A stretch of 64,000 bases of DNA, taken from the NCBI GenBank assembly GCA_000263395.1, contig AJXE01000007.1, positions 1 through 64,000 on the forward strand, in the 5' to 3' direction. This DNA is from Stutzerimonas stutzeri TS44. Lineage in GTDB: Bacteria > Pseudomonadota > Gammaproteobacteria > Pseudomonadales > Pseudomonadaceae. Shown here in pieces: positions 38,827 through 57,159 of the stretch. Each line of letters starts with the position of its first letter. Position 1 is the first letter of the stretch. The translations under genes were made by a program, and so were the position numbers. The notes under the pieces were generated by a model that did no database searches, was not told where the DNA came from, and worked only from the letters and a program-made list of their open reading frames with translations.

Positions 38827-40448
38827 GCCTGATTCCCTTCACCCGCTGGCCCGCCGCGTTCGCCGAGCGCTACCGCCAGGCCGGTTACTGGCTGGGCGAG
38901 CCGCTCAGCCACCTGCTTGCGGTTCAGGTCGAAACGCAGCCGGAGGCCATCGCCGTGGTCTGCGGCGAGCGCGAGCTGAGCTATGCCGAACTCGATGAGT
39001 TGTCCACCAACCTGGCGCGGCGACTGGCCAATCACGGCCTCGGTCAGGGCGACCGGGCGCTGGTGCAGCTGGGCAATCAGGCCGAGCTGTACATCGTCTT
39101 CTTCGCCCTGCTCAAGGCCGGCATCGCACCGGTCAACGCGCTGTTCAGCCACAGCCGGCTGGAACTGCGCGCCTATGCCGAGCAGATCCGTCCGCGCCTG
39201 CTGATCGCCAGCCGTTTGCATCCGCTGTTCCAGAACGACGACCTGTTTCTCGCCGAACTGCAACAGCTGGCCGGCATCGACACCGCCTTGCTGCATGCCG
39301 ACGGTCTGGCGCAGCGCAGCCTGGCGGCCTGGCTGCAACCGGTGGCCGCCGCGCGCGAGTTTGCGCCGACGCCGGCGCACGAGGTGGCGTTCTTCCAGCT
39401 CTCCGGCGGCAGCACCGGCACGCCGAAGCTGATCCCCCGTACCCACGACGACTACTACTACAGCGTGCGGCGCAGCGTGGAGCTGTGCGGTTTCGACCGC
39501 GATACCCGTTACCTCTGCGCACTGCCGGCGGCGCACAACTTCCCGCTCAGCTCGCCCGGCGCGCTGGGCGTGTTCGTCGCCGGTGGCCGCGTGGTGCTGG
39601 CGGCCGATCCCGGCCCGGCCAGCTGTTTTGCGCTGATCGCCGCGCAGCGGGTCAACGTCGCCGCGCTGGTACCGCCGGCGCTGTCGCTGTGGCTGCAGGC
39701 GGCGCCCGGGCATGAGGCCGCGCTGGCCTCGCTGCGGCTGCTGCAGGTCGGCGGCGCGCGGCTGCCAGAAGCGCTGGCGCGGCGCATCCCGGCGGTGCTC
39801 GGCTGTCGTCTGCAGCAGGTCTTCGGCATGGCCGAGGGACTGGTCAACTACACCCGCCTGGACGATGACGACGAGCACGTCTACCTGACCCAGGGCCGGC
39901 CGATGAGCGCGGACGACGAGGTCAAGGTGGTCGACCGCGACGGTTGTCCGGTGGCACCGGGGCAGACCGGCGCACTGCTGACCCGCGGGCCCTACACCAT
40001 CCGTGGCTATTTCCAGAGCCCGGAACACAACGCCCAGGCTTTCGATGCCGAGGGCTTCTACCGCTCCGGCGATCTGGTGCAGCTGCGCGCGGACGGCTAC
40101 CTGGTGGTGGTCGGGCGAATCAAGGACCAGATCAACCGCGGCGGCGAAAAGATCGCCGCCGAGGAAGTCGAGAACTTGCTGATGGCGCATCCGGCCGTCA
40201 CCCACGCCGCGCTGGTTTCCATGCCGGACCCGAGCATGGGCGAGAAGAGCTGCGCGTTCATCGTCAGCCGCGACCCGACGCTCAAGGGCGTCGCCCTGCG
40301 CAAGTACCTGCGTGGCCTCGGGCTGGCCGACTACAAGCTGCCGGACCGCATCGAGCAGGTCGCGGCGCTGCCCATGACGGCGGTGGGCAAGGTCGACAAG
40401 AGTCGCCTGCGCCGCCGTCTCGCCGAACAACTGACCGTCACCGAATAA
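38823..40448 (+). CDS. entE: 2,3-dihydroxybenzoate-AMP ligase
   Basis: A 541-residue stand-alone adenylation enzyme that activates 2,3-DHB and loads it onto the carrier domain of EntB. It has the phosphate loop '[14 protein letters not shown]', the aryl-acid pocket '[14 protein letters not shown]' (the Asn after His is the residue used for DHB in DhbE) and '[20 protein letters not shown]'. The GTG start gives a 4-bp overlap with entC. Length is normal for EntE/DhbE. Confidence 0.95.
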
Positions 40449-40459
40449 GGACTTCGCAC

Positions 40460-41332
40460 ATGGCTATTCCCTCACTCACGCCCTACCGACTGCCCAGCGA
40501 ATGGGCGGTGAACAAGGTCCAGTGGCCGGTCGAGCCGGCGCGAGCGGTGCTGCTGATCCATGACATGCAGGACTACTTCTGCGATTTCTGGGGCGAGGGC
40601 AGCGCCTTCGTTGTCGCGCTGGTCGAGCGCCTGGCCGCCGTGCGCGCGCGTTGCAAGGCGCTTGGCATCCCGGTGGTCTACACCGCACAACCGGGCCAGC
40701 AGGCCGACGCCGAGCGGGCGCTGCTCAACGATATGTGGGGGCCGGGCATCACCCAGTATCCGGCGCGCCAGGGCATCGTCGCCGGCCTGGCGCCGGCGGC
40801 GGACGACACGGTGCTGGTCAAATGGCGTTACAGCGCCTTCCAGCGCTCGCCGCTGGAACACCTGCTGCGCGAGCTGGGCCGCGATCAGCTGATCATCGGC
40901 GGCATCTACGGCCACATCGGCTGCCTGATGACCGCCTGCGACGCCTTCATGCGCGACATCCAGCCGTTCCTGCTGGCCGACGGCATCGCCGACTTCAGCC
41001 AGGTCGACCACCAGATGGCGCTGAACTACGTCGCCACGCGCTGCGGTCGAGTCATCGAATGCCGCGAAGTGCTCGGGCTGGGGCATGCAGCAGGTCTGAG
41101 GCTGACCCGCGAGGCGCTGCAGGCGCGCCTGCTGGCCATGCTCGATGAGGTGGACGAGCCGTTCGACGCGGACGAGAACCTGCTCGACTACGGCCTGGAT
41201 TCGATCCAGGTCATGTCGCTGCTCAGCGAGTGGCGCGAGCAGGGGCTGGAACTGAGCTTCACCGATCTGGCGAAGACGCCGACGCTCAACGGCTGGTGGG
41301 CGCAGATCCAGCAGCGTGGGGGTGCCGCATGA
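40460..41332 (+). CDS. entB: Isochorismatase with aryl carrier domain
   Basis: A 290-residue two-domain protein. The N-terminal isochorismatase (about 1-205) has '[16 protein letters not shown]', '[10 protein letters not shown]' and '[20 protein letters not shown]', and converts isochorismate to 2,3-dihydro-DHB. The C-terminal aryl carrier (about 210-290) has the phosphopantetheine site '[13 protein letters not shown]' with Ser248. It carries the DHB starter unit for the first NRPS, whose start overlaps its stop as ATGA. Confidence 0.96.
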
Positions 41333-44300
41333 GGCCGCTGGGCAATGCGCAGCAGGGCCTGTGGTACGGCTACCTGCTCAACGAAGACCGCGCCATGTTC
41401 AACACCGTCGAATGCATCGCCTTTGCCGGCACGGTGCAGGCGCCACTGCTGATCGCTGCCGTGCAGCAGGCGGTGGGCGAGTGCGAGGCGCTCTGCGGGC
41501 GCTATGTGACCGACGGCGAAACGGTGTGCTTCGACCCCTGCGAGCTGCCGCTGACGGTGGCGCAGCTGGACGTGCCGGCGTTTGCCGATGCCGAAAGCTG
41601 GGTACGCGACTGGGCGCAGGCCGATATCCGTCAGCCGTTCGACCTTGAGCGCGAACTGGCCTGCCGCTTCGTCCTGCTGCGGGCGGCGGGGCAGGATTTT
41701 CTCTACAGCTGCGTGCACCACATCGCCCTCGACGGCTACGGCAGCAACCTGCTGTACCAGCGCGTCGCCGAGCTTTACGGCACCGCCGTGCGCGGCGAGC
41801 CGGCACCGGCCTGCGGCTTCGGCCGTTACGCCGATGTGCTCGCCGAGGACGCCGAGCGCGACGCGCAGAACACGACCGCCGCCGCGCGCGGCTACTGGCT
41901 GGAAGCCTTCTCGCGGCTGCCGGCGCCGGTCAGCTTCAGCGAGCGCAGTGCGCCGATCTCGGCGACCTTCGTGCGGCACGGCGCGCGCTTTCCGGCACCG
42001 CTGTGGCAGCTGCTGAGCGCCACCGCCGAGGCCCACGGTATCGGCTGGGCCGATCTGCTGCTGGCCGCGCTCAGCGCGCAGCTGCGCCAGGTCAGCGGCA
42101 GCGATGCCCAGGTGTTCGGGCTGATGGTGATGAATCGCATCGGCTCGGCGGCGTTCAACGTGCCGTGCATGCAGATGAACATCGCGCCGCTGTGCCTGCA
42201 GGCCGATGGCGAGGCCAGCCTGATCGCCAGTGCGAAGGCGATCGGCAAGCTGCGCCGCGCCAGCCGCAGGCACCAGCATTACCGCTACGAAGCGCTGCGC
42301 CGCGACCTCGGCCGTGTCGGTGGCGAGCAGCGGCTGTTTGGCCCGCTGATCAACATCATGCCGTTCGACCGCCCGCTGGCCTACGGCGAGCTGGCGGCAC
42401 GCACGCTCAACCTCAGCGCCGGGCCGGTGGAGGACCTGACCCTGGAAGTGCAGGTCGGTGCAGATGGCGTTCCGCAGCTGGACTACGACGCCAACCCGGC
42501 CTGCTACAGCGCCGCGCACCTGCAGGCGCTACAGGAAGAACTGTTCGAGCTGCTCGGCCGCTGGCTGACGGAACCCGAGACCCCGCGCGACAGGGTGCTC
42601 GATGCCTGGATGGCCGACTACCGATTTCGCGAGCGCCTGAACGCGCCGGCCGCAGAGCAGGCGCAGCTGGGCGAGGTGACCAGCGTGCTGGCGGCGATCC
42701 GCGCTCACGCCGAGCGCCAGCCGGAGCGCATTGCCCTGTGCCAGGGCGAGCGCAGGCTGAACTACGCCGCGCTGCTCGCACGCGCCGAGGAGATCGCCGC
42801 GGCACTGGCAGAGCAGGGCGTGCAGCCCGGCGCGCGGGTCGGGGTGATGCTCGCGCGTTCGCCCGAGGCGATCCTCGCCCAGCTCGGCGTGCTGCTGGCG
42901 GGCGCCGTGTACGTGCCGCTGGACGCCGAACAGCCGGCCGAACGGCAGACACTGATCTGCGCCAGCGCAGAGCTGGCGCTGGTGATCACCGAAGCGGCCT
43001 ACCGGCATCGTCTGGCCGACAGCTACGCCGGACCGATCCTGCTGGTCGGCCAGCTCGCCAGCCGTGAGCGCCGCCATGCGCCGCGCGGCGGCGAGGCGGC
43101 CGCCTACCTGATGTTCACCTCCGGCTCCACCGGCACGCCGAAGGGCGTGGAGATCAGCCATCGCGCGCTGGATCACTTCAGCGCGGCGGCGCGCCTGCGG
43201 TATGGCGTGACGGCGGACGACCGCATGCTGCAGTTCGCACCGTTCAACTTCGATGCGAGCATCGAGGAAGTCTTCGTCAGCCTGAGTGCCGGCGCGACCC
43301 TGGTGCTGCGCACCGATGCGCTGCTGCAGTCGATCGGCACCTTCGTCGATGGCATCGAGGCACAGGCGATCAGCATCGTCGACCTGCCGACGGCGTTCTG
43401 GAACGAATGGGTGGTGGCGCTGCGCAGCGGCCAGGCGCGGATTCCGGCGCGGCTGCACACGGTGATCATCGGTGGCGAGGCGGTATTTCCCGAACAGCTG
43501 GCAGCCTGGCAACGGGTGGCCGGGCCGCAACTGCGGCTGATCAACACCTACGGACCGACCGAGGCCACGGTGGTCGCCAGCAGCTGCGATCTGCAGGGCG
43601 CCGACGCGGGAGCCGAACGCCTGCCGATCGGGCTGCCGCTGGCGACGGTGCAGGCGCTGGTGCTCGAACGCGGCGACCGTCCAGCCGTCGAGGGTGAGCT
43701 GGTGTTGTGCGGTGCGCAGCTGGCCAGCGGCTATATCAACAGCGCGTCCGCGGCCTTCGCCCGTCTGCGCATCGGTGCGCACGAGCAGACCGTCTACCGC
43801 ACCGGCGACCGCGTGCGCCGCGTCGACGGTCAGCTGGTCTATCTCGGCCGGCTGGACAACGAATTCAAGATCAGCGGCTACCGCATCCAGCCCGGCGAGG
43901 TGGAGGCGCGCCTGCTGGCGCTGGACGGCGTCGACGAGGCCTGCGTGCTCGGCCTCGAGCTGGACGGCGGCCTGCGCCGGCTGGTGGCCTTTGTCGCTGG
44001 CCCGCGTGACGACCTGCGGGCGCTTCGCCGCGCGCTGAGTCATGTGCTGCCGGCGGCGATGGTGCCCACCGACTACCGCCACTACCGCGCGCTGCCGCGC
44101 ACCGGCAGCAACAAGCTCGACCGCAAGCGCCTGCAGGCCGAGTACCTGCAGGGTGCGACGACGCAGGCGCTGGACGATGCGACCCAGCAGCGGGTCAGCG
44201 CCATCTGGCAGCAGATCCTCGGCGTCGGCGGCATTCAGGCGCGGGACAACTTCTTCGAACTCGGTGGCCAGTCGTTGCAGACCATCCAGATCGTCAACCG

Positions 44301-44430
44301 CCTGGCCGCCGAGTTCGGCACCGCGGTGAAGGTTTCGGATGTGTTCGACAACCCCTGTCTGGCGGATTTCTGCCGCTTCCTCGACAGCCGGCTGCGGCAG
44401 GGGCAAGCGCAGGTGGAACTGGTCTGGTGA
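41329..44430 (+). CDS. Non-ribosomal peptide synthetase, C-A-T (predicted Lys)
   Basis: A 1033-residue, one-module NRPS. The condensation domain (about 1-430) has an intact active site HHIALDG at 130-136 and should join DHB from EntB to the first amino acid. The adenylation domain (about 455-960) has '[19 protein letters not shown]' and '[13 protein letters not shown]'. My by-eye specificity residues are D-A-E-D-I-G-T-V-V-K, in which Glu at the third position is typical of domains for basic amino acids and the whole resembles lysine codes. The carrier domain has LGGQSL with Ser982. There is no thioesterase at the end. Confidence 0.93.
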
Positions 44431-44440
44431 GGACATGCAG

Positions 44441-45199
44441 ATGACACAGCAGATGGATTTTCGCGGGCGGCGCATCTGGGTCACCGGTGCCGGCCAGGGC
44501 ATCGGCCGCGCGGTGGCCGAGGGCTTTGCCCGGCTTGGCGGTGAGGTGCTGGGGCTGGACCGTGCGTTTCCGGAGCGCGACTACGGTTATCGCACCCATG
44601 TGCTCGATGTGGGTGATGCCGCCGCCGTGCGTCAGGCCTGCGCCGAGCTGCTGGTGCCGGGGCAGGGCATCGACGTGTTCGCCAGCGTCGCCGGCATCCT
44701 GCGCCTCGGCGCGATCGAAGAGCTGAGCCTGGCCGACTGGGACGACTCGCTGCGGGTCAACGTCTCCGGGCCGTTCTACCTGCTGCGCGAGCTGCTGCCG
44801 CGCTTCCGCGCGCAAGGCCGTGGCGCGGTGGTGGCGGTGAGCAGCAATGCGACGCGGGTGCCGCGCATGCAGATGGCGGCCTACGCGGCATCCAAGGCAG
44901 CGCTGAGCAGCCTGATCCGCACCGCCGGGCTGGAGCTGGCGAGCTGCGGCGTGCGCTGCAACCTGGTGTCGCCGGGTTCCACCGATACCGCCATGCAGCG
45001 CGGCATGTGGACCGACGACAGCGGCCGCGCGCGGACCATCGCCGGCCTGCCCGAGCAGTTCAAGCTCGGCATCCCGCTGCAGAAGATTGCCACGCCCGAG
45101 GAGGTGGCCAATACGGTGCTGTTCCTCGCCTCGGACCTGGCCAGCCACATCACCCTGCAGGACATCGTCGTCGACGGCGGTGCCACCCTGGCAGCCTGA
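44441..45199 (+). CDS. entA: 2,3-dihydro-2,3-dihydroxybenzoate dehydrogenase
   Basis: A 252-residue short-chain dehydrogenase that oxidises 2,3-dihydro-DHB to 2,3-DHB with NAD+. It has the nucleotide motif 'VTGAGQGIGRAVAEGFA', the catalytic 'SSNATRVPRMQMAAYAASKAA' (Ser, Tyr, Lys) and 'CNLVSPGSTDTAMQ'. I chose the second ATG (44441) because the GAGG at 44429-44432 is 8 bases from it; 44435 would be too close. It sits between the two NRPS genes, which is unusual but keeps it in the operon. Confidence 0.94.
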   Translation: MTQQMDFRGRRIWVTGAGQGIGRAVAEGFARLGGEVLGLDRAFPERDYGYRTHVLDVGDAAAVRQACAELLVPGQGIDVFASVAGILRLGAIEELSLADWDDSLRVNVSGPFYLLRELLPRFRAQGRGAVVAVSSNATRVPRMQMAAYAASKAALSSLIRTAGLELASCGVRCNLVSPGSTDTAMQRGMWTDDSGRARTIAGLPEQFKLGIPLQKIATPEEVANTVLFLASDLASHITLQDIVVDGGATLAA

Positions 45200-45209
45200 G
45201 AGGTAGCAG

Positions 45210-48200
45210 ATGCACGACAACATCATCGGCCTGCTCCGGCAGCTCGCCGGGCAAGGCGTACACCTGGCGCTGAATGCCCAGGGTCAGCTGGTTTCGCAGT
45301 CGAGCCAGGCGGCACTGACGCCCGAGCTGGGTCAGCTGATTCGCGCCAATCGCGACGCCATCGTCCGCTGCCTGCGCGCGCGGCAGGCGTTCGAGGCGCC
45401 CATCGAGCCGCATCACGCCGAGGTCGGCCCGCTGTCCTCGTCGCAGAGCGGGCTGTGGTTCATCGAGCAGTACCAGGCGCATTCGCACCTGTACAACATG
45501 CCGGTGTTCTTCCGCCTCAGCGGCGAGCTGGACGTGGCGGCGCTGGAGTTCGCCTTCGACGCCCTGGTGCGGCGCCACGCCAGCCTGCGCACGCGCTTTC
45601 TGCGCAACGCCGAGGGCAAGGGCGAGCAGCAGATCTTCGCCCATCGCGGCTTCGCCCTGATCCATGAAGACTTCACCGGACTGGAGGAATCGGCCCTCGA
45701 GGCGCGAGTGGCCGCACGGGTGCGCGAGGAAATCGAGCGGCCGTTCGACCTCGCCAGCGGCGAGCTGACCCGCGTGCACCTGCTGCGTCTGGGCGCGCGT
45801 GAGCATGTGCTGCTGATCAACCAGCATCACATCATTTCCGATGGCTGGTCGGTGAAGAACATGTTCGCCGGCCTCAAGACCGCCTTCCTCGCCTACCAGA
45901 ATCGCCAGCCGCTGGACTGGGGCGAGCCGCCGCTGACCTTCATCGACTACGCGCACTGGTTCAACTCGCCGCTGTTTCGCGATTACCACGCCGAGTACAG
46001 GCCGTTCTGGGTCGAGCGCCTGGCCGGCATTCCCGAGGTGCACAGCCTGCCGCTGGACCGGCCGCGCCCGGCGCAGCAGACCAGCGGCGGCGCGCTGGTG
46101 TTCTCGACCATCGACAACGGCCTGTGGGCGCGCTTCAAGCAGCTCTGCCAGCGCCACAGCGCTTCGCCGTTCATCGGCCTGCACGCGTTGTTCGCCCTGC
46201 TGCTGGCGCGTCACAGCGGTGAGCGTGACATCGTCGTCGGCACCCCGCTGGCCTATCGCGAACGCCCGGACATCGAGACGCTGGTGGGCTTCTTCGTCAA
46301 CACCCTGGTGCTGCGCACGCAGCTGCCCGAGCAGCAGTCGTTCAGCGACTACCTGCGCCAGTGCCGGCAGGACGATCTGCAGGCCTTCGACCATCAGCTG
46401 TACCGCTTCGAGGCGCTCGGCGAGGCGCTGGGCATGGACCGGCATACGGCGATCAACCCGATCTTTCAGATCATGCTGGTGTACCAGGCGCGGGTCGATT
46501 TCAACGACCTGATCCCCGGTTGCGCGGCGGTGGAGGAAACCTCGCCGGCGCTGCCGGCCAAGACCGATATCTCGGTGAAGGCCACCGAGTTGATGGATGC
46601 GGTGCGCATCGACTGGCTGTACGCCACCGCGCTGTTCGAGCGCGGCACCGTCGAAGGCTACGCCAGCCGCTTGCTGCGGCTGCTGCAGGCGGTGGTCGCC
46701 GACCCCGCGCAGGACATCTGGCAATTGCCGCTGCTCGACGACGAACTGCTGCGCACCACCGGCGAGCGGCTGGCGGCGCTGCCGGCGGGCTACCCGCACG
46801 GGCTGACGCCGCTGTCGCTGTTCGAGCAGTGGGCGCGCCGCCAGCCGCAGGCCGTGGCGCTGCATGAAGGCGCAGGCCACATCAGCTACGCCGAGCTGGA
46901 TGCGCGGGCCAATCGCCTGGCGCACTGGCTGCAGGCCGAGGGCTGCCGGCCGGGTGCGCTGGTCGGGGTGCTGGCGCGGCGTGAGAACGCCTTCGCCGTC
47001 GCCGCGCTCGCGGTGTGGAAGGCCGGCTGCGCCTACGTGCCGCTGGACCCGGATTACCCGGCCGAGCGCATCGCCCATATCGTCAGCGACGCCGGGCTCG
47101 ACCTGCTACTCGGTGCCGGCGCCGCGCCGTTCGCGCTGGGCGAGCTGCGCTGGGTCGATCTGAACGACCCGGAGCTGTGCGCGCAGCTGGATGCCCAGTC
47201 GCCTGCGGCGCCGCCACGCCGCGACGAGCCGCAGCAGCTGGCGCAGGTGATCTACACCTCGGGTTCCACAGGGTTGCCCAAGGGCGTGATGGTCGAGCAC
47301 GGCGCGCTGGCCAACCTGCTGCTGGATCATGGCCGCCGTCTGGCCATCGGCCCGGGCGACCGCATGCTCGACTGCATGTCGCTGTCCTTCGACGCCGGCA
47401 ACATGTGCGCGCTGCTGCCGCTGACCCATGGCGCCTGCCTGCTCTGGGCCGACCCCGGCGAGGGCCTGCTGGACGAGATCGAGCGCACGCGCACCACCCA
47501 CATGATCTTCGCCACCGCGCTGCTGGCGACCCTGCCGGCGCGGCCGCTGCCGGCGATGAAGGCGGTCGGCTTCGGCGGCGAGGCCTGCCCGCCGGCGCTG
47601 GCCGAGCGCTGGGGCCGGCAGTTCCGCCTGATCGACATGTACGGCCCGACCGAGGCCACCGTCACCGCGCTGACCAAGCGCATCGAACCCGGCACGACGC
47701 CGAGCATCGGCCGGCCCATCGACGGCATGCAGGCGCTGGTGCTCGACGCGCATGGCCGGCTCTGTCCGGTTGGCGTACCGGGTGAACTGTGCCTGGCTGG
47801 ACTGGGTCTGGCGCGCGGCTACCTGAACCAGCCGGAGCGCACCGCCGCGGTGTTCCGCGAGCATGAGATCGCCGGCGTGACGGTGCGGCTGTACCACACC
47901 GGCGACCGCGCGCGCCTGCTGGCCAACGGCGACTACCAGTACCTCGGTCGCATCGACGAGCAGATCAAGCTGCGCGGCTATCGCATCGAACCCGGCGAGA
48001 TCGAGGCGCAGCTGGGCATCAGCTGCCCGGCGCTGCAACAGATCAAGGTCAGCGTCGCCCGCCAGAGCCAGCGCCAGGCGCTGGTGGCCTACGCCTCGGT
48101 CAAAGCGGGTGAAGCCATGCCGGACGCCGACGCCATCCTCCAGGACGTGGCGCGGCGCCTGCCGGAATACATGCTGCCGGTGCGGCTGATCCTGCTCGAA

Positions 48201-49778
48201 CGCATGCCGCTGACCGCCAACGGCAAGCTCGACCTGCGACGTCTGCCGCCGGTGGAACTGGCCGACAGCGCAGTGCTGGTGGCGCCGGCGGACGAGCTGG
48301 AAGCGGCGGTGCTGGCGATCTGGCAGGGCGTGCTCGAGCAGCCGCTGGGGGTCGAGAGCGACTTCTTCGCCCTCGGCGGCGATTCGATCCTGAGCATCCA
48401 GCTGACCACCCGCCTGCGTGATGCCGGCCATGCCTGCACGGTCAAGGAAGTGTTCGAGGCGCGCACCGTGCGCCGCCTGTGCCGCGTGCTCGGCCAGCCG
48501 CGCGAACGGGTGGCGATCCGCGCCGAGCAGGGCGTGCTGGAGGGCGAGGCATTCGCCCTGCAACCGATCCAGCAGTGGTTCTTCGAACAGCCGTTCGCCA
48601 GCCCGCAACACTGGAATCAGGGCGTGGTGCTGCGCCTGCCGGCCAACATCGCGGTGGCGCAGTTGATGGACTTCATGCGCCAGCTGCTGCGCCATCACGA
48701 TGCGCTGCGCCTGGCGGTGGATGCGCGCGGCCAGCGCTATCTGGCGCATCTGCCGTTGAGCGAACCGGCGCGGCTGGATGCGGCAACGCTGGGCGAGGAT
48801 GGCCTGCAGCAGGCGCTGACCGAGCTGCAGGCGCATATGCAGCCGGCGCAGGGGCGCCACCTGGCCTGGGCGCTGCTCGACCGGCTGGCCGGCGACACGC
48901 GCGGGCTGTTCATCGCCGTGCATCACCTGGCGATCGACGCGGTGTCCTGGCGCATCCTGGTCGAGGATCTGCGCCGGCTCGCGCGCGGCGAGGCGCTGCC
49001 GGCCAAGACCAGCAGCTATCGCCAGTGGGGCGAGGGACTGGCCGCCTATGCCCGGCGCGCCGAGGCACAGCTGCCGTACTGGCTGGCGGAGCTGGCCGGC
49101 ATGCCGCAGACGCTACCCGCCGGCTGGGCCGGCACGGATGCAGCGCGCGAGCAGAAGCTGGAACTGAGCGAAGCGCTGACGCGGCGGTTGCAGCAGGCCA
49201 GCCGGCACTTCGCGGTGGACATGCGCGAGCTGCTGCTGGCTGCCCTGACCCGCGCGCTGCACGGGCTCGGGCTGGGCGAGCGGCAGTGGATCATGCTCGA
49301 AGGCCACGGCCGCGAGGCCATCGACCCGGCGCTGGATGTCAGCCGCACGGTCGGCTGGTTCACCAGCATGTTCCCGCTGGCGCTGCGCGATCAGGCGGAC
49401 TGGCCGCAGCTGCTGCGCCATGCGGCCGAACAGCTGCGGCGCGTGCCGGACAAGGGCGTCGGCTACCTGCCGCTGCGCGCCAAGCCTGAGTTTCGGCCGC
49501 AGCTGCCGTTGCCGGCGGTGGCGCTCAACTACCTCGGCGTCTACCAGAGCGGCACGGACGCCTGGCAGGCACTGCCCATCGCCCCGGGCCGGCCGAGCGC
49601 GGCGGACAACCCCTCGGCGGAGCTGATCAGCCTGCACGGCGGCGTGTTCGACGGACGCCTGACCCTGCGGCAGATCGGCAATCTGCGCGCCGAGCTGAAC
49701 GAGCAGCTGCTGGCTCTGCTGCAGGACAACCTGCTGGAGCTGGCCGAGCAAACGGAGGACAGCCATGCGTGCGCTTGA
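45210..49778 (+). CDS. Non-ribosomal peptide synthetase, TubC-dock-C-A-T-E
   Basis: A 1522-residue NRPS. The first about 60 residues look like a TubC-type docking domain ('LLRQLAGQGVHLALNAQGQL'). Next are a condensation domain (HHIISDG at 206-212), an adenylation domain (about 520-1020; 'VIYTSGSTGLPKGVMVEHG') and a carrier LGGDSI (Ser1059; GGDS is the form usual before epimerases). A full epimerisation domain follows, with 'HHLAIDAVSW' at about 1238, 'EGHGRE', 'SRTVGWFTSMFP' and 'ALNYLG'. The specificity residues read D-A-M-I-G-G-M-V-T-K by eye and match no code I know. It should install a D-amino acid. No thioesterase is present. Confidence 0.92.
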   Translation: MHDNIIGLLRQLAGQGVHLALNAQGQLVSQSSQAALTPELGQLIRANRDAIVRCLRARQAFEAPIEPHHAEVGPLSSSQSGLWFIEQYQAHSHLYNMPVFFRLSGELDVAALEFAFDALVRRHASLRTRFLRNAEGKGEQQIFAHRGFALIHEDFTGLEESALEARVAARVREEIERPFDLASGELTRVHLLRLGAREHVLLINQHHIISDGWSVKNMFAGLKTAFLAYQNRQPLDWGEPPLTFIDYAHWFNSPLFRDYHAEYRPFWVERLAGIPEVHSLPLDRPRPAQQTSGGALVFSTIDNGLWARFKQLCQRHSASPFIGLHALFALLLARHSGERDIVVGTPLAYRERPDIETLVGFFVNTLVLRTQLPEQQSFSDYLRQCRQDDLQAFDHQLYRFEALGEALGMDRHTAINPIFQIMLVYQARVDFNDLIPGCAAVEETSPALPAKTDISVKATELMDAVRIDWLYATALFERGTVEGYASRLLRLLQAVVADPAQDIWQLPLLDDELLRTTGERLAALPAGYPHGLTPLSLFEQWARRQPQAVALHEGAGHISYAELDARANRLAHWLQAEGCRPGALVGVLARRENAFAVAALAVWKAGCAYVPLDPDYPAERIAHIVSDAGLDLLLGAGAAPFALGELRWVDLNDPELCAQLDAQSPAAPPRRDEPQQLAQVIYTSGSTGLPKGVMVEHGALANLLLDHGRRLAIGPGDRMLDCMSLSFDAGNMCALLPLTHGACLLWADPGEGLLDEIERTRTTHMIFATALLATLPARPLPAMKAVGFGGEACPPALAERWGRQFRLIDMYGPTEATVTALTKRIEPGTTPSIGRPIDGMQALVLDAHGRLCPVGVPGELCLAGLGLARGYLNQPERTAAVFREHEIAGVTVRLYHTGDRARLLANGDYQYLGRIDEQIKLRGYRIEPGEIEAQLGISCPALQQIKVSVARQSQRQALVAYASVKAGEAMPDADAILQDVARRLPEYMLPVRLILLERMPLTANGKLDLRRLPPVELADSAVLVAPADELEAAVLAIWQGVLEQPLGVESDFFALGGDSILSIQLTTRLRDAGHACTVKEVFEARTVRRLCRVLGQPRERVAIRAEQGVLEGEAFALQPIQQWFFEQPFASPQHWNQGVVLRLPANIAVAQLMDFMRQLLRHHDALRLAVDARGQRYLAHLPLSEPARLDAATLGEDGLQQALTELQAHMQPAQGRHLAWALLDRLAGDTRGLFIAVHHLAIDAVSWRILVEDLRRLARGEALPAKTSSYRQWGEGLAAYARRAEAQLPYWLAELAGMPQTLPAGWAGTDAAREQKLELSEALTRRLQQASRHFAVDMRELLLAALTRALHGLGLGERQWIMLEGHGREAIDPALDVSRTVGWFTSMFPLALRDQADWPQLLRHAAEQLRRVPDKGVGYLPLRAKPEFRPQLPLPAVALNYLGVYQSGTDAWQALPIAPGRPSAADNPSAELISLHGGVFDGRLTLRQIGNLRAELNEQLLALLQDNLLELAEQTEDSHACA

Positions 49779-50106
49779 GCGGCATTTCACCGAGCAGTTC
49801 CAGCGCCACGCCGTGCGCCCGGCGCTGGGCTGTCTGGGCGACAGTTTCAGCTACGCCGAGCTGCAGGCGCGGGTCGCGGCCATCGAACACGCCGCTGTGC
49901 GGCTGCATGGCGAGGGCGATGAGGCCTGTCTGGTTGGCTATGTGGAGTTGTGCGAGGCCGGGGCGCTGAGTCGGGTGGCGATCCGGCGCGAGCTGCAGCG
50001 CAGTCTGCCGCACTACATGGTGCCGGGGCGGATTGTGTTGCTGGAGTGTTTGCCGAAGACCGCCAGCGGGAAGATTGATCGCAAGAGGTTGCTGGAGGTG
50101 GTTTGA
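49765..50106 (+). pseudogene. In-frame internally deleted adenylation domain (mini A domain)
   Basis: A 113-residue ORF that begins as an adenylation domain ('LERHFTEQFQRHAVRPALG', 'FSYAELQARVAAIE'). From about residue 45 it continues as the very end of one ('CLVGYVEL', 'LRRELQ'-like 'IRRELQRSLPHYMVPGRIVL', 'LPKTASGKIDRKRLLEVV'). The whole ATP- and substrate-binding core, about 400 residues, is missing, yet the frame is kept. It overlaps the NRPS end by 14 bp and has a good GGAGGAC site, so it is probably still translated. It cannot activate an amino acid alone. It may be a relic of a lost third enzyme. Confidence 0.75.
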
Positions 50107-50169
50107 GGTAAGGAGCTTCGCTGTCTATGGGTTCTGCGCTCATGGCGATTGGCCGGCTGCTTGAGAGCT

Positions 50170-50714: not shown

Positions 50715-50796
50715 GCGGCATCAGCACGCGCGGTAGTCGCCCAACCTCAACCGCAAACCGAAACGAGCTGGCAACCGCCCAGCCTCCCCTCGATCC

Positions 50797-51741
50797 TTAA
50801 TCCTTCACCACCAATTCAGCCTCCGCCTTCCCCAACAACGCCTCGATATCCTCGATCACCTGCAGCGCCGCCATCGGCCCGCCAAGCGAAGTCCACAAGG
50901 ACCCGTCCACCGCACCGAAGCGCCTCGCCTGAATGGCCGACAGCTGGCGGAACGCCGGCGTCTGCTCGGCCTGATTCATCGCCTCGACCGCCTCGCCGCT
51001 GGTGGCCAGTGTGCCGATCACCAGCCAGTCGGCATCCAGCAGTTCCAGCGATTCCAGGCTCAGCGCCATCGAATGGGTGTGGCCGCGGTCCTGCTGGTGG
51101 GCGGGGCGGCGCAGCCCGACATCTTCGGCGACGGTGCTGGCGAAGGCATCCTTGAACATGTACGAGGGCCCTTTGGGATTCCAGCGCACGATGCTCAGCG
51201 TTTGGCCCTGATGGGCCGCCAGGCGCTGGCGTGCTTCTTCGACTCGTGCCCGATAGCGCTCCAGCACGGCCTTGGCCTCGGCTTCGCGGTTCAGCGCCTG
51301 CGCGGTGCGCTGCATGCTTTCCTGCCAGGGGCGTGCCCAGTTGAAGGTGATCACCGTCGGGGCGATCTCGTTGAGGATCGCCAGCTGCTCCGGTTTCACC
51401 GGGCCGGTGAGGATCAGGTCGGGTTGCAGCTCCAGCAGGGTCTCCAGATTCGGGTTGTCGATATCGCCGACCACCTTGATGCCGGCCGGCAGCTTGCCGT
51501 CGAGATAGCGTGGCGGCGCCGCCTGGCCGCGGCCGTTGATGGTGCCGACCGGGGTGACGCCGAGGGTCAGCGCGGTGTCCAGGTCGATCTCGCTGAGGGT
51601 GATCACCCGCTTGGGTGCTTCCGGCACCGTGACGGTATTGCCGAGCGCATCGGTCATCTGCCGGGCGTCGGCCTGGGCCGGCAGGGCGAGCAGGCCGGCG
51701 AGCAGCGCGGCGGCGAGGCTCCAGGATGTCTTTCGGGTCAT
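50797..51741 (-). CDS. Periplasmic iron-siderophore binding protein
   Basis: A 314-residue class III binding protein (FepB/FhuD/BtuF fold) that would carry ferric siderophore from the outer-membrane receptor to the permease. A signal peptide covers about 1-25. The mature chain has 'GNTVTVPEAPKRVITLSEID', 'NLETLLELQPDLILTG' and the C-terminal 'FGAVDGSLWTSLGGPMAALQV'. The start at 51741 overlaps the ATPase stop (ATGA). It is the last gene of the uptake operon. Confidence 0.92.
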   Translation of the reverse strand: MTRKTSWSLAAALLAGLLALPAQADARQMTDALGNTVTVPEAPKRVITLSEIDLDTALTLGVTPVGTINGRGQAAPPRYLDGKLPAGIKVVGDIDNPNLETLLELQPDLILTGPVKPEQLAILNEIAPTVITFNWARPWQESMQRTAQALNREAEAKAVLERYRARVEEARQRLAAHQGQTLSIVRWNPKGPSYMFKDAFASTVAEDVGLRRPAHQQDRGHTHSMALSLESLELLDADWLVIGTLATSGEAVEAMNQAEQTPAFRQLSAIQARRFGAVDGSLWTSLGGPMAALQVIEDIEALLGKAEAELVVKD

Positions 51742-52574
51742 TGCATGCCTTCCTTTTCGGGGTATTCGTGGCGCAGCGGTTGCGGTGCGGCATGGCTCTG
51801 GCGGCGGCGCGGCACGATCACCGGAGCACCGTCGCCGGGAGCGTGGAGGATGTCGACGTCGGTGTCGTAGAGGCGGTCGACCAACGCCTTGGTCATCACC
51901 TCCCGCGCCGGGCCGATAGCCTGCACGCGGCCGTCGGCGAGGGCGATCAGCTCGTCGCAATAGCGCGCGGCAATGCCGAGATCGTGGATGACGATGAGCA
52001 CCGTGCGCCCGGCAGCGGCGATGCGGTACACCGCTTCCATCACCTCGGCCTGGTGGCCGATGTCCAGCGCGCTGGTGGGTTCGTCGAGCAGGATCAGGTC
52101 GGTGTTCTGCGCCAGGATCATGCCCAGCCAGGCCCGTTGCGCCTGGCCGCCGGAGAGCGAGGTGGCGCTGCGCTGCCAGATGGCGTCGAGCTGCATCGCC
52201 TCGCGGGCGCGGGCGACCTGCTGGGCGTCTTCCTCGCTCCACTGGTTGAACCAGCCCTGATGCGGGTGGCGGCCGTACTGCACCAGCTGCTCGACGCGGA
52301 TGCCTTCGGCCAGCACCGGCCGTTGCGGCAGGAAGGCCAGCTCGCGCGCCAGCGCCTTGAGCGAATAGTGCGTCAGTGGCTTGCCGTGGATTTCCACCGT
52401 GCCGCGCTGCAGCGGTAACTGGCGGGCGAGCAGTTTGAGCAGCGTGGATTTGCCGCTGCCGTTGGGGCCGACGATGCCGATCAGCTTGCCGCGCGGCAGG
52501 CTGAAGGACACGTCGTCGAGCACCACCTTGTCCTGGTAGGCGAAATGCAGGTTTTCTGCACGCAGGGCAGTCAT
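51738..52574 (-). CDS. Iron-siderophore ABC transporter ATP-binding protein
   Basis: A 278-residue FecE/FepC-type ATPase with Walker A 'GPNGSGKSTLLKLLA', signature 'LSGGQAQRAWLGMILAQ' and Walker B 'LILLDEPTSALD', then the H-loop 'VIHDLGIAARYC'. It powers the FecCD-type permease encoded just before it. Both junctions are 1-4 bp overlaps, so the three transporter genes are translated together. The last about 25 residues (Arg/His/Pro rich) are extra compared with FecE. Confidence 0.94.
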   Translation of the reverse strand: MTALRAENLHFAYQDKVVLDDVSFSLPRGKLIGIVGPNGSGKSTLLKLLARQLPLQRGTVEIHGKPLTHYSLKALARELAFLPQRPVLAEGIRVEQLVQYGRHPHQGWFNQWSEEDAQQVARAREAMQLDAIWQRSATSLSGGQAQRAWLGMILAQNTDLILLDEPTSALDIGHQAEVMEAVYRIAAAGRTVLIVIHDLGIAARYCDELIALADGRVQAIGPAREVMTKALVDRLYDTDVDILHAPGDGAPVIVPRRRQSHAAPQPLRHEYPEKEGMQ

Positions 52575-53863
52575 CAGTCAGCTCCTCGTCTGTCCTTGAT
52601 CAAGAGGCCGAGCAGCAGGATGCCGCCGAGCAGGCGCGTCATGATTCCGGTGGGGATTTCTTCGGGTTGCGCGAGCACGCGCACCAGCGTATCGCTGCCG
52701 AGCAGCAGCACCGCGCCGCACAGTGCCGACAGCCAGATCGGTGCGAGGTTGTCGCGCGCCAGCCACGAGGCGAGGATCGGCGCGGCCATGGCGATGAACA
52801 CCACCGGTCCGCCGATGGCCGTGCCCAGCGCCGCCACCAGAATCGCCAGGGCGAGCACGCCGAGCTGGATAGCCGGCACGCGGATGCCGAGGTTCTGCGC
52901 GGTGGCATCACCGAAGCGCAGCAGCGCCAGCGGCCGGTTGACCAGCGCCAGCAGCGGGCAGAGCAGCGCCAGCAGCACCGCGATGGGGCTGACCGTCTGG
53001 TAGCTGATGCCGGCGAAGTGGCCCATCGTCCACAGGTAGATGCTGCCCAGGTGTACCAGCGGCTGCGTCGACATGGCGAAGTCGCCGATGGCGCCGAGCA
53101 GCTCGGACAGCGCAATGCCGATGACGATGAACAGGTAGCCCTGCTCGCCGGGGCGCCGGCACAGGGCGAACAGCGCGGCGGCGGCGAGCAGGGCGCCGAG
53201 CGGCGAGGCCCACCAGGGCCAGTTGCCGAGCGTCAGGTAGAGGGCGAAGGCGACCACGGCGAGCGAGGCGCCCTCGTTCACGCCGATCATGTCCGGCGTG
53301 GCCAGGCGGTTGCGCACCAGGGTCTGGATCAGACAGCCGGCCATGCCCATCGCCAGCCCGCCGAAGATGGCGCCCAGCGCCACGCCGGCGAGAATCAGCT
53401 TGAGCGGGCTGGCCTGGCCGAGCATCAGGCCGACGCCGAGCACCACCAGATTGCCCAGCAGCGCGCCGAGTCCGGACCAGAGCAGGTAGCCCTGGGTCGA
53501 CTCGACGCCGAAATAGATCAGGCCGATCACCAGCCCGAGTACCGCACCGGCATTCACGCCGAGCAGGCCGGGTTCGGCCAGCGGATTGCGCGTTGCGCTC
53601 TGCAGCAGCGAGGCGGCGATCGCCAGACTGGCGCCGACCACCAGCGCGGCGAAGGTGCGCGGCAGGCGCAGGGTGTCGACCACCATGGCCAGCTTGTCGT
53701 CTGCCAGATACTCAGGCTGCTCGAGCAGATAACCGAGTACCGCGTCGGCGCCATACACGCCGGCACCGGTGGCCAGCGACAGGGCCAGCAACACCAGCAG
53801 AAGGCCGCCCCCGGCAACGAGGGTGGCCTTCTGGAAGCGCGGCATCGTCGAATCAGTTCGCAT
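52574..53863 (-). CDS. FecCD-type permease, apparent FecC/FecD chimera
   Basis: A 429-residue membrane protein, about 80-100 residues longer than a usual FecCD subunit but too short for two. The family motif occurs twice: RNPLAEPGLLGVNAGA at about 92-107 and RNRLATPDMIGVNEGA at 184-199. Residues 1-162 read as the first half of one permease (ending 'SPLKLILAGVALGA'); from about 165 a second copy begins without its first helix and runs to the normal end. It looks like two adjacent permease genes fused by an in-frame deletion. Activity is uncertain. It is the only permease in the operon. Confidence 0.85.
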   Translation of the reverse strand: MRTDSTMPRFQKATLVAGGGLLLVLLALSLATGAGVYGADAVLGYLLEQPEYLADDKLAMVVDTLRLPRTFAALVVGASLAIAASLLQSATRNPLAEPGLLGVNAGAVLGLVIGLIYFGVESTQGYLLWSGLGALLGNLVVLGVGLMLGQASPLKLILAGVALGAIFGGLAMGMAGCLIQTLVRNRLATPDMIGVNEGASLAVVAFALYLTLGNWPWWASPLGALLAAAALFALCRRPGEQGYLFIVIGIALSELLGAIGDFAMSTQPLVHLGSIYLWTMGHFAGISYQTVSPIAVLLALLCPLLALVNRPLALLRFGDATAQNLGIRVPAIQLGVLALAILVAALGTAIGGPVVFIAMAAPILASWLARDNLAPIWLSALCGAVLLLGSDTLVRVLAQPEEIPTGIMTRLLGGILLLGLLIKDRRGAD

Positions 53864-53917: not shown

Positions 53918-55879
53918 TCAGATGTCGTAGTTGAAACCGACGAACAAGGTGCGGCCCATGAGGATGTTGTCGACCGACTGGGCAACGTCGTCGCGCTTTT
54001 CGTTGGTCAGGTTGTTCATCCCCGCGCGCAGCGAGAGCTCCGGCGTCGCCTGGTACTTGGCGCCCAGGTTCAGCTGGTGGAACGCGCCACTCTCGACGTT
54101 GGGTTTGGCGGCCGAGACGTACAGCAGCTGGCTGCCGGTGTACTGGTAGTCGAGGTTCAGCCCGAGCCTGGGCATGGCCTGCCAGTCGACGCCGAGGTTG
54201 GCGACATGCTGCGGCGAGTTGCGGATCGCTTCGTCGGTGTCGCGGTCCTCGGCATCCGAGTAGGTGTAGTTGCCGCGCAGGCCGAGCGTGTCGGTCAGCG
54301 CGTAACGGCCGTGCAGCTCGTAGCCCTGCACGCGCGCCTTGCTGACGTTGCTGTAGGTCATCACCGGCGGACGGTAGCCGACGCGCCAGGTGTCGGTGAC
54401 GATCATGTCTTCGATGTCGTTGTGGAAGAACATGATGCCGGCTTCCAGGCGCTCGTCCTGGTAGAGCGTGCCGATTTCGTAGCTGGTCGCGGTTTCCGGC
54501 TTGAGGTTCGGGTTGCCAACCAGCGTGCACATGCCGCGGCAGGCCAGGACGCCGTAGGTTTCGTCCGACTGATAGATGCTCGGCGCCTTGAACGACTTGC
54601 CCGCGCCGCCCTTGATCACCCAGTTGTCGGTGAGGTTGTAGACGCCGTAGGCGCGCGGGCTGAACTCGCCGCCGAAGGTGTCGTGGTCGTCCCAGCGGCC
54701 GCCGAGCGTGATGTCCAGATTGCCGAGGGAGAACTCGTCCTGCAGGTAGATCGCCTTCTGGTCGACTTCGGTGTCCGCGCCGAGGTTCTGGTTGTGCGCC
54801 AGTTCGGTACGCCGCCATTCGCTGCCGACGGTGAACAGGTGGCTGCCCAGCGCGGCGCTGAGCTGGCCGTCGACGGTGTGGTTGTTCTGCTGGATGTCGC
54901 CTTTCTTGCCGCGCAGCGTGGTCATGATCTGCGAGTCGTCCATCAGGTCGACGTCTTCGTAGTAGTAGCGCACGCGGGTGTTGAAGCCGTCCCAGTTGCC
55001 GCTGTGGCCGAGGCCGAAGCTCCAGCGCTCCATCTCCTGCACGTTAGGGACGACGGCGCCGAAGTTGTTCCACTCGGCCTCGCGGTCGTCCTTGCGATGG
55101 GTGAAATCGAGGTCGACGGTCTGGCGCTCATCCAGCAGCCAGTTCAGCGAGCCGAAGACGCTGCCGTTCTGCCGTTGTTCCACCGCGTCGGTGTTGGGGT
55201 TGACGGTCTGCTCGCTCAGCCAGGCGGCCTGGTCGGTTTTCTCGACGAACAGATTGCCGCGCAGTTTGCCGTCGATCAGCGCGCCGCTGACGTAGCCGCT
55301 GGCCTGATGGCTGTCGCCGGAGTCGCCCTCGCTGGGGTGTTCGTAGGTATAGGCGACGCCGGCGTGCGTTTCGTCGGTGGCCTGACGCAGGATCACGTTG
55401 ACCACGCCGCCCAGCGCATCGGCGCCGTACAGCGAGGACATCGGCCCGCGGATCACTTCGATGCGCTCGATGGCGGCCATCGGGATCGACGACAGGTCGA
55501 AGTCATTGGCGTAGTTGGAGGACAGCGCATCGCGCGAGTTGATGCGCCGGCCGTTGACCAGCAGCAGCGTGTAGTCCGAATCCATGCCGCGCAGCTTGAT
55601 TTCCTTGCGGCCGTAGGTGGAGGACGGGTTGATGTGCACGCCCGGCAGGTATTTGACCGCGTCGGCCAGGTTGTAGACCGGCAGCTTGTCCAGCTCCTCG
55701 CGGGTGACCACCGAGACGCTCGCCGGTGCGCTGAGTTCGCTGTGGGCGGTCTGGGTGGCGGTGATGACTTCGTTCTTCAGGGTGACCGGGGTATCAGCCA
55801 GCGCTGCCAGCGGCAGCAGGCTGCCGAGCAGGGTCAGGGTCAGATGACGGGGGCGGCTGATTCTTCGTGCAAGCTGCAT
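53918..55879 (-). CDS. TonB-dependent ferric-siderophore receptor
   Basis: A 653-residue outer-membrane receptor. A signal peptide (about 1-28, cut near 'LAALADT') is followed by a TonB box region 'NEVITATQ'. The plug domain contains 'LADAVKYLPGVHI', 'KEIKLRGMDSDYTLLLVNG' and 'IERIEVIRGPMSSLYGADALGGVVN', and a 22-strand-type barrel ends 'TLFVGFNYDI'. The look is FepA/CirA-like, suiting a catecholate. I start at 55879, which has GGAGCC upstream. It lies between the exporter and permease genes. Confidence 0.94.
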   Translation of the reverse strand: MQLARRISRPRHLTLTLLGSLLPLAALADTPVTLKNEVITATQTAHSELSAPASVSVVTREELDKLPVYNLADAVKYLPGVHINPSSTYGRKEIKLRGMDSDYTLLLVNGRRINSRDALSSNYANDFDLSSIPMAAIERIEVIRGPMSSLYGADALGGVVNVILRQATDETHAGVAYTYEHPSEGDSGDSHQASGYVSGALIDGKLRGNLFVEKTDQAAWLSEQTVNPNTDAVEQRQNGSVFGSLNWLLDERQTVDLDFTHRKDDREAEWNNFGAVVPNVQEMERWSFGLGHSGNWDGFNTRVRYYYEDVDLMDDSQIMTTLRGKKGDIQQNNHTVDGQLSAALGSHLFTVGSEWRRTELAHNQNLGADTEVDQKAIYLQDEFSLGNLDITLGGRWDDHDTFGGEFSPRAYGVYNLTDNWVIKGGAGKSFKAPSIYQSDETYGVLACRGMCTLVGNPNLKPETATSYEIGTLYQDERLEAGIMFFHNDIEDMIVTDTWRVGYRPPVMTYSNVSKARVQGYELHGRYALTDTLGLRGNYTYSDAEDRDTDEAIRNSPQHVANLGVDWQAMPRLGLNLDYQYTGSQLLYVSAAKPNVESGAFHQLNLGAKYQATPELSLRAGMNNLTNEKRDDVAQSVDNILMGRTLFVGFNYDI

Positions 55880-55923
55880 GTGCAGGCTCCGTTGCCAAGT
55901 AGTTGTTGTACAGCGCGGACTGA

Positions 55924-57159
55924 TCACGATTCCCCGGCAGGTTGGGTCCTGCCTTCTTGTGTGGTGCTGGCGTCTGGGCGTGCGTGGATCGCACGCAGCA
56001 GCAACAGCACGCCGATGCCGGCGGCGGTACCGGCGCCGGCGTAGAGCCAGGCCAGGTCGTTGAAGCCGACCAGGCGGCGGGCGGCGTCCTCGGCGAGGTA
56101 GGCCGCGGAAAACAGGCTGCCGAGGCCGGCAGCGATGTTCGATACGGTGCTCTGCAGCGCCATGAAGGCGGCACGCTGCTCGGGCCGCGGAACGGCGGCG
56201 GCGATAGTCAGCGTGCTGCTGCTGCGCACCGCGCCGAGCGCCATGAACAGGGTGAACACCAGATACAGCGACAATCCCAGCGGCAACGCGAAACCGAGCA
56301 GGGTGACGATCGCCAGGCCGCCGCTGCTGACCAGCGCCACGGCCTTCGCGCGGCCGCGATCGATCAGCACGCCGCCCAGATGCATCGCCGCCAGGCTGGC
56401 GAGGCCGCCGCACAGATAGAGCAGACCGATGTGCTGGCGCGGAAAGCTGAGGTTGAACTGGAAATAGTTGGAGAAGTGCGGCACCAGCAGGAAGTGGCCG
56501 AACATCTGCAGCGCCACGATCAACAGCGCGCCCTGGCACAGCGGGGTGCGCAGCAGCGGCCACAGGCGCGTCGCGCTGCGGGCGTGGGTCGGCGGTGTGG
56601 GAAACAGTCGCAGGCAGAGCAACGCGAGCAGCAGACCGGCGCCGCCGAACAGCACGAAGGGCGCCTGCCAGCCGCCGCGCGCGGCAAGTTCCAGCGCCAG
56701 CGGCGTGACCACGATGGCCGCCAGTGAATAGCCCATGGCGACGTAGGCGAGCTTGCGGCCACGTTCGGCGGGCGGGATCAGATCGAGCATGGCGGCCATC
56801 AACACCGCGCCCATGGGCCCTGCGACCAGGCCGGACAGCACGAACAGCACGATCAGCTGTTGCGGCCCGCTGGCCAGCGCGCAAGCCAGCAGCAGGGCGA
56901 AACGCAGTGCCAGCAGGCCGATCAGCGCGCGCTTGCGCTCCAGGCGATCGAGCCAGGCGGCGCTCAACGCCGCGCTCAGCGCCGCGGCCAGCGTGGCGCC
57001 ACCGGCGAGGTAGCCGACGTGGCTGGCCTGCATGCCCAGTGCGCGGACGAAATCCGGACCGAGCGGCATCACCATCATCAGGCTGCCGATCGACAGCATG
57101 TTGATCAGCATGGCCAGGTGCACGGCGGCTTTCGATTGTCGATCAGCGTCCATCTGCAT
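55924..57159 (-). CDS. MFS transporter, EntS-like siderophore exporter
   Basis: A 411-residue major-facilitator protein with twelve hydrophobic helices. The loop 2-3 region 'SAAWLDRLERKRALIGLLAL' and the loop 8-9 region 'GVLIDRGRAKAVALVSSGG' are the usual MFS basic motifs. Being first in the iron-uptake operon and next to catechol biosynthesis, it most likely exports the siderophore as EntS does. This is inferred from position. The TonB receptor starts 44 bp downstream. Confidence 0.87.
   Translation of the reverse strand: MQMDADRQSKAAVHLAMLINMLSIGSLMMVMPLGPDFVRALGMQASHVGYLAGGATLAAALSAALSAAWLDRLERKRALIGLLALRFALLLACALASGPQQLIVLFVLSGLVAGPMGAVLMAAMLDLIPPAERGRKLAYVAMGYSLAAIVVTPLALELAARGGWQAPFVLFGGAGLLLALLCLRLFPTPPTHARSATRLWPLLRTPLCQGALLIVALQMFGHFLLVPHFSNYFQFNLSFPRQHIGLLYLCGGLASLAAMHLGGVLIDRGRAKAVALVSSGGLAIVTLLGFALPLGLSLYLVFTLFMALGAVRSSSTLTIAAAVPRPEQRAAFMALQSTVSNIAAGLGSLFSAAYLAEDAARRLVGFNDLAWLYAGAGTAAGIGVLLLLRAIHARPDASTTQEGRTQPAGES

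What the first reader, a model, noticed from the sequence alone, without database searches (positions are those of the whole stretch)
49765..50106. Adenylation-domain remnant with the whole catalytic core deleted in frame
The 113-residue ORF joins the first about 44 residues of an A domain directly to its last about 69 (A10 motif included), with no stop or frameshift and with a strong ribosome site coupled to the NRPS upstream. It cannot make aminoacyl-AMP. Either it is a recent in-frame deletion of a third enzyme or a kept mini-protein that acts as a structural or docking piece. It marks the spot where the assembly line now ends.
Basis: partly seen in the sequence, partly recalled or inferred. 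Interest (0 to 1): 0.75.

Follow-up and report, generated by a model that had tools for sequence, protein, structure and literature searches.

The report
Siderophore glycine-loading gene, core deleted
This bacterium has lost the middle of one gene in its iron-scavenging (amonabactin) pathway, the gene thought to add an optional glycine, so it probably still makes the siderophore but only in its glycine-free forms.

Summary
Window 49765-50106 encodes 113 residues: 1-40 match the start and 43-113 the end of a stand-alone adenylation (A) domain; residues 41-42 match neither. Full-length orthologs (~480 residues) occur in 15 of 56 Stutzerimonas genomes searched, none short like this one; here 1104 bp net are missing in frame, with the catalytic core. 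The gene is amoH of an amonabactin cluster (amoCEBFAGH). All 15 intact copies and one Aeromonas AmoH carry a glycine-type pocket (DILQLGC[V/I]WK). A review calls glycine optional in amonabactins. Best reading: a deletion on this strain's own branch abolished glycine activation, and the other six genes, intact and constrained, should still make the glycine-free forms (P693/T732). It is not the end of an assembly line. The ribosome site and 14-base overlap with amoG are inherited. Whether the fragment itself is constrained is unresolved: against five relatives its unique changes are 4 synonymous and 1 not. A side result is more interesting: Stutzerimonas AmoG lacks the extra C and carrier domains of Aeromonas AmoG, so AmoH there may charge a shared carrier. 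The chemistry is inferred, not measured.

The parts
49765..50106 (+). amoH remnant, 113 aa: residues 1-40 = N-terminus of AmoH, 41-42 = junction residues, 43-113 = C-terminus with the A9 and A10 motifs
49885..49890 (+). deletion junction, codons 41-42 (GAA CAC), matching neither end of the intact gene; 1104 bp net missing here relative to Stutzerimonas sp. S1
45210..49778 (+). amoG, 1522 aa NRPS (weak TubC-type docking match, C, A, carrier, E); intact; lacks the C-carrier tail of Aeromonas AmoG
44435..45199 (+). amoA, short-chain dehydrogenase (2,3-dihydro-DHB dehydrogenase type)
41329..44430 (+). amoF, NRPS C-A-carrier, closest NCBIfam model myxochelin MxcG (below that model's cut-off); presumed lysine module
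40460..41332 (+). amoB, isochorismatase with aryl carrier domain
38823..40448 (+). amoE, DHB-AMP ligase type enzyme (start inferred)
37654..38826 (+). amoC, isochorismate synthase
50797..53863 (-). uptake genes: periplasmic binding protein (start approximate, near 51741), ABC ATPase 51738-52574, FecCD permease 52574-53863
53918..57159 (-). TonB-dependent receptor, closest model CirA (below cut-off; start approximate, near 55885), and MFS exporter 55924-57159, closest model MxcK (below cut-off)

Best explanation
The 113-residue ORF is what is left of amoH, the stand-alone glycine-activating A domain of an amonabactin operon (amoCEBFAGH) in a Stutzerimonas. An in-frame loss of 1104 bp on this strain's own branch removed the ATP- and amino-acid-binding core (A3-A8), so AmoH can no longer activate glycine. 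The other six genes are intact and constrained. Since glycine is the optional residue of amonabactins, the line should still join two DHB-Lys units to Phe or Trp and release the glycine-free forms P693 and T732 (neutral masses 693.30 and 732.31), but not P750 or T789. Shown: homology, deletion, intact relatives on both sides of it in the tree, intact neighbours, glycine-type pocket in relatives. Inferred: that AmoH supplies the optional glycine in Stutzerimonas, that the strain still makes siderophore, and which forms.
For: Full-length orthologs in 15 of 56 Stutzerimonas genomes, none short like this one. Net 1104 bp in-frame loss. In an 8-sequence amoG tree the window lies among intact lineages, 5.0-6.3% from S1, degradans and G066; the support for its exact place is only 0.667. 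dN/dS 0.08-0.20 for amoC, E, B, F, A and G against S1 and G066. Pocket residues D235 I236 L239 Q278 L299 G301 C322 V/I330 W331 K517 in 15 of 15 intact AmoH and in Aeromonas caviae AmoH; DILQLG-type codes are given as glycine in PMC12283262 and PMC5466765 (passages). Gene order equals amoCEBFAGH. The review PMC8949500 calls glycine the optional residue, in two of four amonabactins (passages). Masses assigned to P693, P750 and '789' in cultures of P. zhaodongensis SST2 and Pseudomonas sp. SST3 (PMC10609385, passages); one search shows S. zhaodongensis is a Stutzerimonas with intact amoH. The amonabactin receptor FstC of Aeromonas salmonicida is said to have broad ligand plasticity (PMC12421891, passages).
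Against: No reads and no second strain of this species were available, so the deletion rests on one assembly. Position 322 is Cys, not the usual Leu/Met. Stutzerimonas lacks the fourth C and carrier domains that would take glycine in Aeromonas, so how, or even whether, AmoH glycine enters the product there is unproven. If AmoH does something essential, the strain would make no amonabactin at all. The primary paper on the optional mechanism (Esmaeel 2016) was not held. Against the distant G025, dN/dS of the six genes is higher (0.26-0.46).
Confidence: 0.75

Rival explanations
1. The short form is a kept mini-protein: a free-standing C-terminal A subdomain in which the N-terminal helix SYAELQARVAAIE replaced the lost helix GEIEASLRRLAGV, now acting as a structural or docking piece.
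For: The alignment lays the N-terminal helix over the lost one; Pfam AMP-binding_C is covered from position 7 to 76; a 17-sequence AlphaFold2 model gives block means of 76-91 pLDDT over residues 31-110 and Foldseek finds A domains and related ligases; changes unique to the remnant against five relatives are 4 synonymous and 1 nonsynonymous (codon 2, variable in the relatives too), where neutral evolution would give 4 or more synonymous of 5 with a chance of 0.017.
Against: No other of 56 Stutzerimonas genomes showed a short form. A young deletion explains the few changes equally well. The N-terminal part alone has dN/dS 0.444 against S1, from six changes, the junction codon included. Single-sequence folding is poor (pLDDT 49.8) and the alignment-based model leans on rows from full A domains. 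The ribosome site and overlap are inherited.
Confidence: 0.06
2. The loss kills the pathway: AmoH is needed for any product and the cluster is at an early stage of decay, as in other Stutzerimonas.
For: Some Aeromonas salmonicida strains carry a natural deletion in amoG and make no amonabactin (PMC10253897, passages).
Against: The six other genes of the operon are open, full length and constrained; glycine is reported as optional.
Confidence: 0.16
3. Assembly artefact: the core was collapsed or dropped by the assembler.
For: Draft genome of 78 contigs; no reads available.
Against: The site lies inside a 143 kb contig; the ends of the intact gene share words of only 7-9 bases in five relatives, too short for collapse; the junction holds two codons found in neither end.
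Confidence: 0.03

Closest known systems
AmoH of the amonabactin operon amoCEBFAGH (Aeromonas; intact copies in Stutzerimonas)
   Same: Place after amoG, N- and C-terminal sequence (residues 36-113 match S1 at 91%, residues 36-109 match Aeromonas caviae at 61%), A9 and A10 motifs
   Different: Motifs A3-A8, hence ATP and amino-acid binding, are gone; 113 residues instead of 481 (S1) or 514 (A. caviae)
Natural amoG deletion in some Aeromonas salmonicida isolates from fish raised in seawater (PMC10253897, passages)
   Same: A natural deletion in one gene of the same operon
   Different: There amonabactin is lost; here the gene hit is the presumed glycine enzyme and the core NRPS genes are intact
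Stand-alone A-T proteins complementing NRPS modules in trans (albicidin Alb04, ramoplanins, enduracidins; PMC8949500, passages)
   Same: A separately encoded A domain serves another protein's line
   Different: Those replace an inactive A domain needed for the product and bring their own carrier; AmoH has no carrier and serves an optional residue

Membership tests
AmoH, stand-alone A domain of amonabactin clusters | Position directly after amoG in amoCEBFAGH order | tested here: met
AmoH, stand-alone A domain of amonabactin clusters | Homology of both ends to intact AmoH | tested here: met
AmoH, stand-alone A domain of amonabactin clusters | Catalytic core motifs A3-A8 and substrate pocket | tested here: not met
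   absent from the 113 residues; so it is a remnant, not a working AmoH
AmoH, stand-alone A domain of amonabactin clusters | Glycine-type specificity code in intact orthologs | tested here: met
   15 of 15 Stutzerimonas and 1 of 1 Aeromonas; position 322 is Cys; positions assigned by motif from recalled GrsA numbering; substrate not assayed
Amonabactin biosynthetic cluster | DHB genes plus AmoF and AmoG NRPS, intact | tested here: met
Amonabactin biosynthetic cluster | AmoG with C-A-carrier-E followed by a second C and carrier, as in Aeromonas | tested here: not met
   AmoG open frames 1518-1526 in 13 of the 15 genomes with intact amoH, 1377 in G023 and 1669 in G025 (1517 aa aligned); none reaches 2087; exactly three condensation-type domains in 6 of 6 genomes searched
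Amonabactin biosynthetic cluster | Amonabactin made by this strain | not testable with these tools
   needs LC-MS
A stand-alone family of ~113-residue proteins | Other members of the same length | tested here: not met
   none among 56 Stutzerimonas genomes; the Pfam hit and the NCBIfam hits shown (25 of 43) are to C-terminal parts of A domains or acyl-CoA ligases

The most novel reading that the evidence does not exclude
The 113-residue product is a functional helix-swapped C-terminal A subdomain: the deletion happened to replace the helix before the beta-strand AAVRL with the N-terminal helix, leaving a foldable AMP-binding_C unit that still binds AmoG or a carrier domain, making this a new kind of free-standing NRPS accessory born in one deletion.
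Probability: 0.06. Interest if true: 0.65.

Novelty: new variant of a known kind. Interest (0 to 1): 0.36.

Why it matters
It is a natural knock-out of the one enzyme thought to make the amonabactin line optional, in an otherwise intact operon. That makes the 'optional glycine' model testable without engineering: a strain without AmoH should make only P693/T732. The comparison also shows that Stutzerimonas AmoG lacks the extra C and carrier domains of Aeromonas AmoG while AmoH is kept under purifying selection in the four genomes compared. If glycine is really incorporated there, AmoH probably charges a carrier shared with another building block, an unusual mode for an NRPS.

Tried and rejected
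A search for the lysine code string in papers gave one unrelated paper. The single-sequence fold of the remnant was of low confidence.

Considered and rejected: repeat-mediated deletion or collapse (longest shared word at the two ends 7-9 bases in five relatives). Replacement by another amino-acid A domain in this genome: of 8 matches to intact AmoH, 6 are listed, three in the cluster (AmoG, AmoF, the remnant) and three outside at 27-30% identity; an A-carrier-thioesterase protein on contig C2 and a 196-residue frame on C38 were looked at only briefly, and their substrates are unknown. A missing C-carrier unit elsewhere: the Aeromonas tail P0008 finds only the first C domain of AmoG, at 22-23%, in 4 of 4 genomes.

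Mended on re-checking: a first count gave 7 of 7 private changes as synonymous (criterion S1 = degradans and different from the window). Two of those seven are shared with G032/24a75. Against five relatives the unique changes are 4 synonymous and 1 nonsynonymous, which is weaker; the claim of a recent deletion was toned down.

Limits of counts: the list of weaker matches was cut by the tool; '15 of 56' counts full-length matches at 71% identity or more (this strain's own genome is among the 56); one is this strain, one (G072 = 4C29) a scrap with four stops, and 39 show no AmoH ortholog among the listed matches. In one search the degradans stretch did not reach amoC and covered 486 of 540 amoE codons. 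dN/dS values are simple Nei-Gojobori counts; 113 codons give wide errors.

Full report
What is there. ORF 49765-50106 (+) encodes 113 residues without a stop. It overlaps the stop of the NRPS gene before it (45210-49778) by 14 bases. Pfam sees an almost complete AMP-binding_C domain (32.5 bits, cut-off 24.5). The genome is a Stutzerimonas: the nearest named relatives found are Stutzerimonas sp. S1, S. degradans DSM 50238 and S. stutzeri 24a75 (records very near the window may be left out there).

The deletion. In S1 the gene at this place encodes 481 residues. Residues 1-40 of the window protein match its start and 43-113 its end; the two codons between (GAA CAC) match neither side. The net loss is 1104 bp, in frame. 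A3-A8 are gone; A1, A9 and A10 remain (motif names recalled). The ends of the intact gene in five relatives share words of only 7-9 bases, and the site lies inside a 143 kb contig, so a repeat collapse by the assembler is unlikely, though no reads were available.

How common it is. Of 56 Stutzerimonas genomes (this one included) searched with S1 AmoH, 15 hold a full-length ortholog (71-100% identity, open frames 479-563), one is this strain, one (G072/4C29) holds a scrap with four stops, and 39 show no ortholog among the listed matches (weak matches were cut from the list). None showed the short form. In an 8-sequence amoG tree this strain lies among intact lineages (5.0-6.3% from S1, degradans and G066), though its exact place has support of only 0.667. 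So the deletion most likely belongs to its own branch.

What the gene was. The order is isochorismate synthase, DHB-AMP ligase, isochorismatase-ArCP, NRPS (C-A-T), SDR, NRPS (C-A-T-E), A domain, the order amoC-E-B-F-A-G-H given for amonabactin (PMC11861348, passages). An unannotated Aeromonas caviae record carries homologs of amoF, amoA, amoG and amoH in that order, with 61% identity over residues 36-109 of the remnant. Amonabactins are reported from P. stutzeri VS-10 (PMC5345036, passage), an amonabactin cluster from a Stutzerimonas (PMC10165715, passages and one section), and masses assigned to P693, P750 and '789' from cultures of P. zhaodongensis SST2 and Pseudomonas sp. SST3 (PMC10609385, passages).

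What AmoH did. The ten pocket residues, placed by motif (GrsA numbering recalled), read D I L Q L G C V/I W K in 15 of 15 intact Stutzerimonas copies and in A. caviae. PMC12283262 gives DILQLGMIWK for glycine domains and PMC5466765 gives DILQLGVI (passages); Cys at 322 is unusual. The review PMC8949500 (passages) says glycine is introduced in only two of the four amonabactins ('optional mode'), that AmoE-AmoF act twice, and that AmoG accepts Phe or Trp. Computed masses fit two DHB, two Lys, one Phe or Trp, with or without Gly. So the loss of AmoH should remove P750 and T789 and leave P693 and T732. Uptake need not suffer: the Aeromonas salmonicida receptor FstC is reported to have broad ligand plasticity (PMC12421891, passages). 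Whether FstC resembles the receptor here was not tested.

The rest of the operon. dN/dS against S1 and G066 is 0.08-0.20 for amoC, E, B, F, A and G; against the distant G025 it is 0.26-0.46. Genes of uptake and export types lie downstream on the minus strand.

Is the remnant constrained? Its dN/dS is 0.139 against S1, 0.112 against degradans, 0.099 against G032 and 0.132 against 24a75; the N-terminal part alone gives 0.444 against S1, from six changes, the junction codon included. These values mostly reflect time before the deletion. Changes unique to the remnant against five intact relatives (111 codons, junction left out) are 4 synonymous and 1 nonsynonymous, the latter at codon 2, which varies in the relatives too. 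Under neutrality 4 or more synonymous of 5 has a chance of 0.017. A looser count (different from S1 = degradans) gave 7 of 7 synonymous, but two of those are shared with G032/24a75. So a young deletion or some constraint is suggested, not shown, and the data do not separate the two.

The mini-protein idea. MAFFT lays the N-terminal helix AELQARVAAIE over the lost helix GEIEASLRRLAGVQ. With 17 rows AlphaFold2 gives mean pLDDT 74.3 and pTM 0.68, with block means of 76-91 over residues 31-110; Foldseek matches A domains and related ligases (best E 8.9e-06, TMq about 0.6). Without an alignment the mean is 49.8. So a fold is possible, but the rows come from full A domains and bias the model. I keep this at 6%.

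An unexpected difference. A. caviae AmoG has 2087 residues with three condensation-type and two carrier domains; PMC11861348 gives 2089 residues and three condensation domains for A. hydrophila (passages). In Stutzerimonas, AmoG open frames are 1518-1526 in 13 of the 15 genomes with intact amoH (1377 in G023, 1669 in G025 with 1517 aligned). Six of six genomes searched have exactly three condensation-type domains, all in amoF and amoG. In G066 and G061, with intact AmoH, the carriers found are those of AmoB, AmoF and AmoG, one in an 81-residue frame and one in a 916-residue frame; G031, G015 and G032 have further small carrier-like frames of 89-96 residues elsewhere. In the window's genome the 916-residue protein is an A-carrier-thioesterase. 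The Aeromonas tail finds only the first C domain of AmoG (22-23%) in 4 of 4 genomes. The AmoH core is nevertheless constrained (dN/dS 0.06-0.15 in six pairs of four genomes). If glycine is incorporated in these species, AmoH probably charges a shared carrier. This is inference.

Verdict. It is a loss, seen in one genome, of an accessory gene in a known pathway, of moderate interest because it is a natural test of the optional-glycine model.

Noticed in passing
L107 7433-13696 versus window 45210-49778: Aeromonas AmoG carries an extra C and carrier domain after the E domain; Stutzerimonas AmoG lacks both and no extra C domain is present in 6 of 6 genomes searched, although AmoH (glycine-type) is kept.
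   Followed up: partly
L037 (SD25545, the contig of G023): In the 20 kb held the amo cluster lacks amoF and amoA: an amoB frame matches over 88 residues only and amoG starts at about residue 175, while amoH is intact.
   Followed up: partly
L038 9940-10240 and L105 9985-10073: S. stutzeri 4C29 and S. xanthomarina DSM 18231 keep only 3' scraps of amoH; no other amo gene was matched in the stretches held.
   Followed up: partly
window 50149-50736 and 17425-17995: A ~580 bp repeat follows the remnant; ten further matches of 260 bases or more in this genome (76-90% identity), and similar DNA lies after amoH in S1, degradans, G066, G032 and 24a75.
   Followed up: partly
window 37654-38826: amoC is much farther from S1 (dS 0.458) than from G066 (0.179), while the other five genes are about equally far from both, which hints at recombination at the upstream edge of the operon.
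   Followed up: no
L005 370-3114 (G000 contig C2), minus strand: A 914-residue AMP-binding-carrier-thioesterase protein of unknown substrate lies elsewhere in this genome.
   Followed up: partly
PMC10609385 (passages): An ion at m/z 694.3082 listed there as without database hits equals the computed [M+H]+ of amonabactin P693 (694.3083); the value listed as its [M+H]+ (693.3010) equals the neutral mass.
   Followed up: yes
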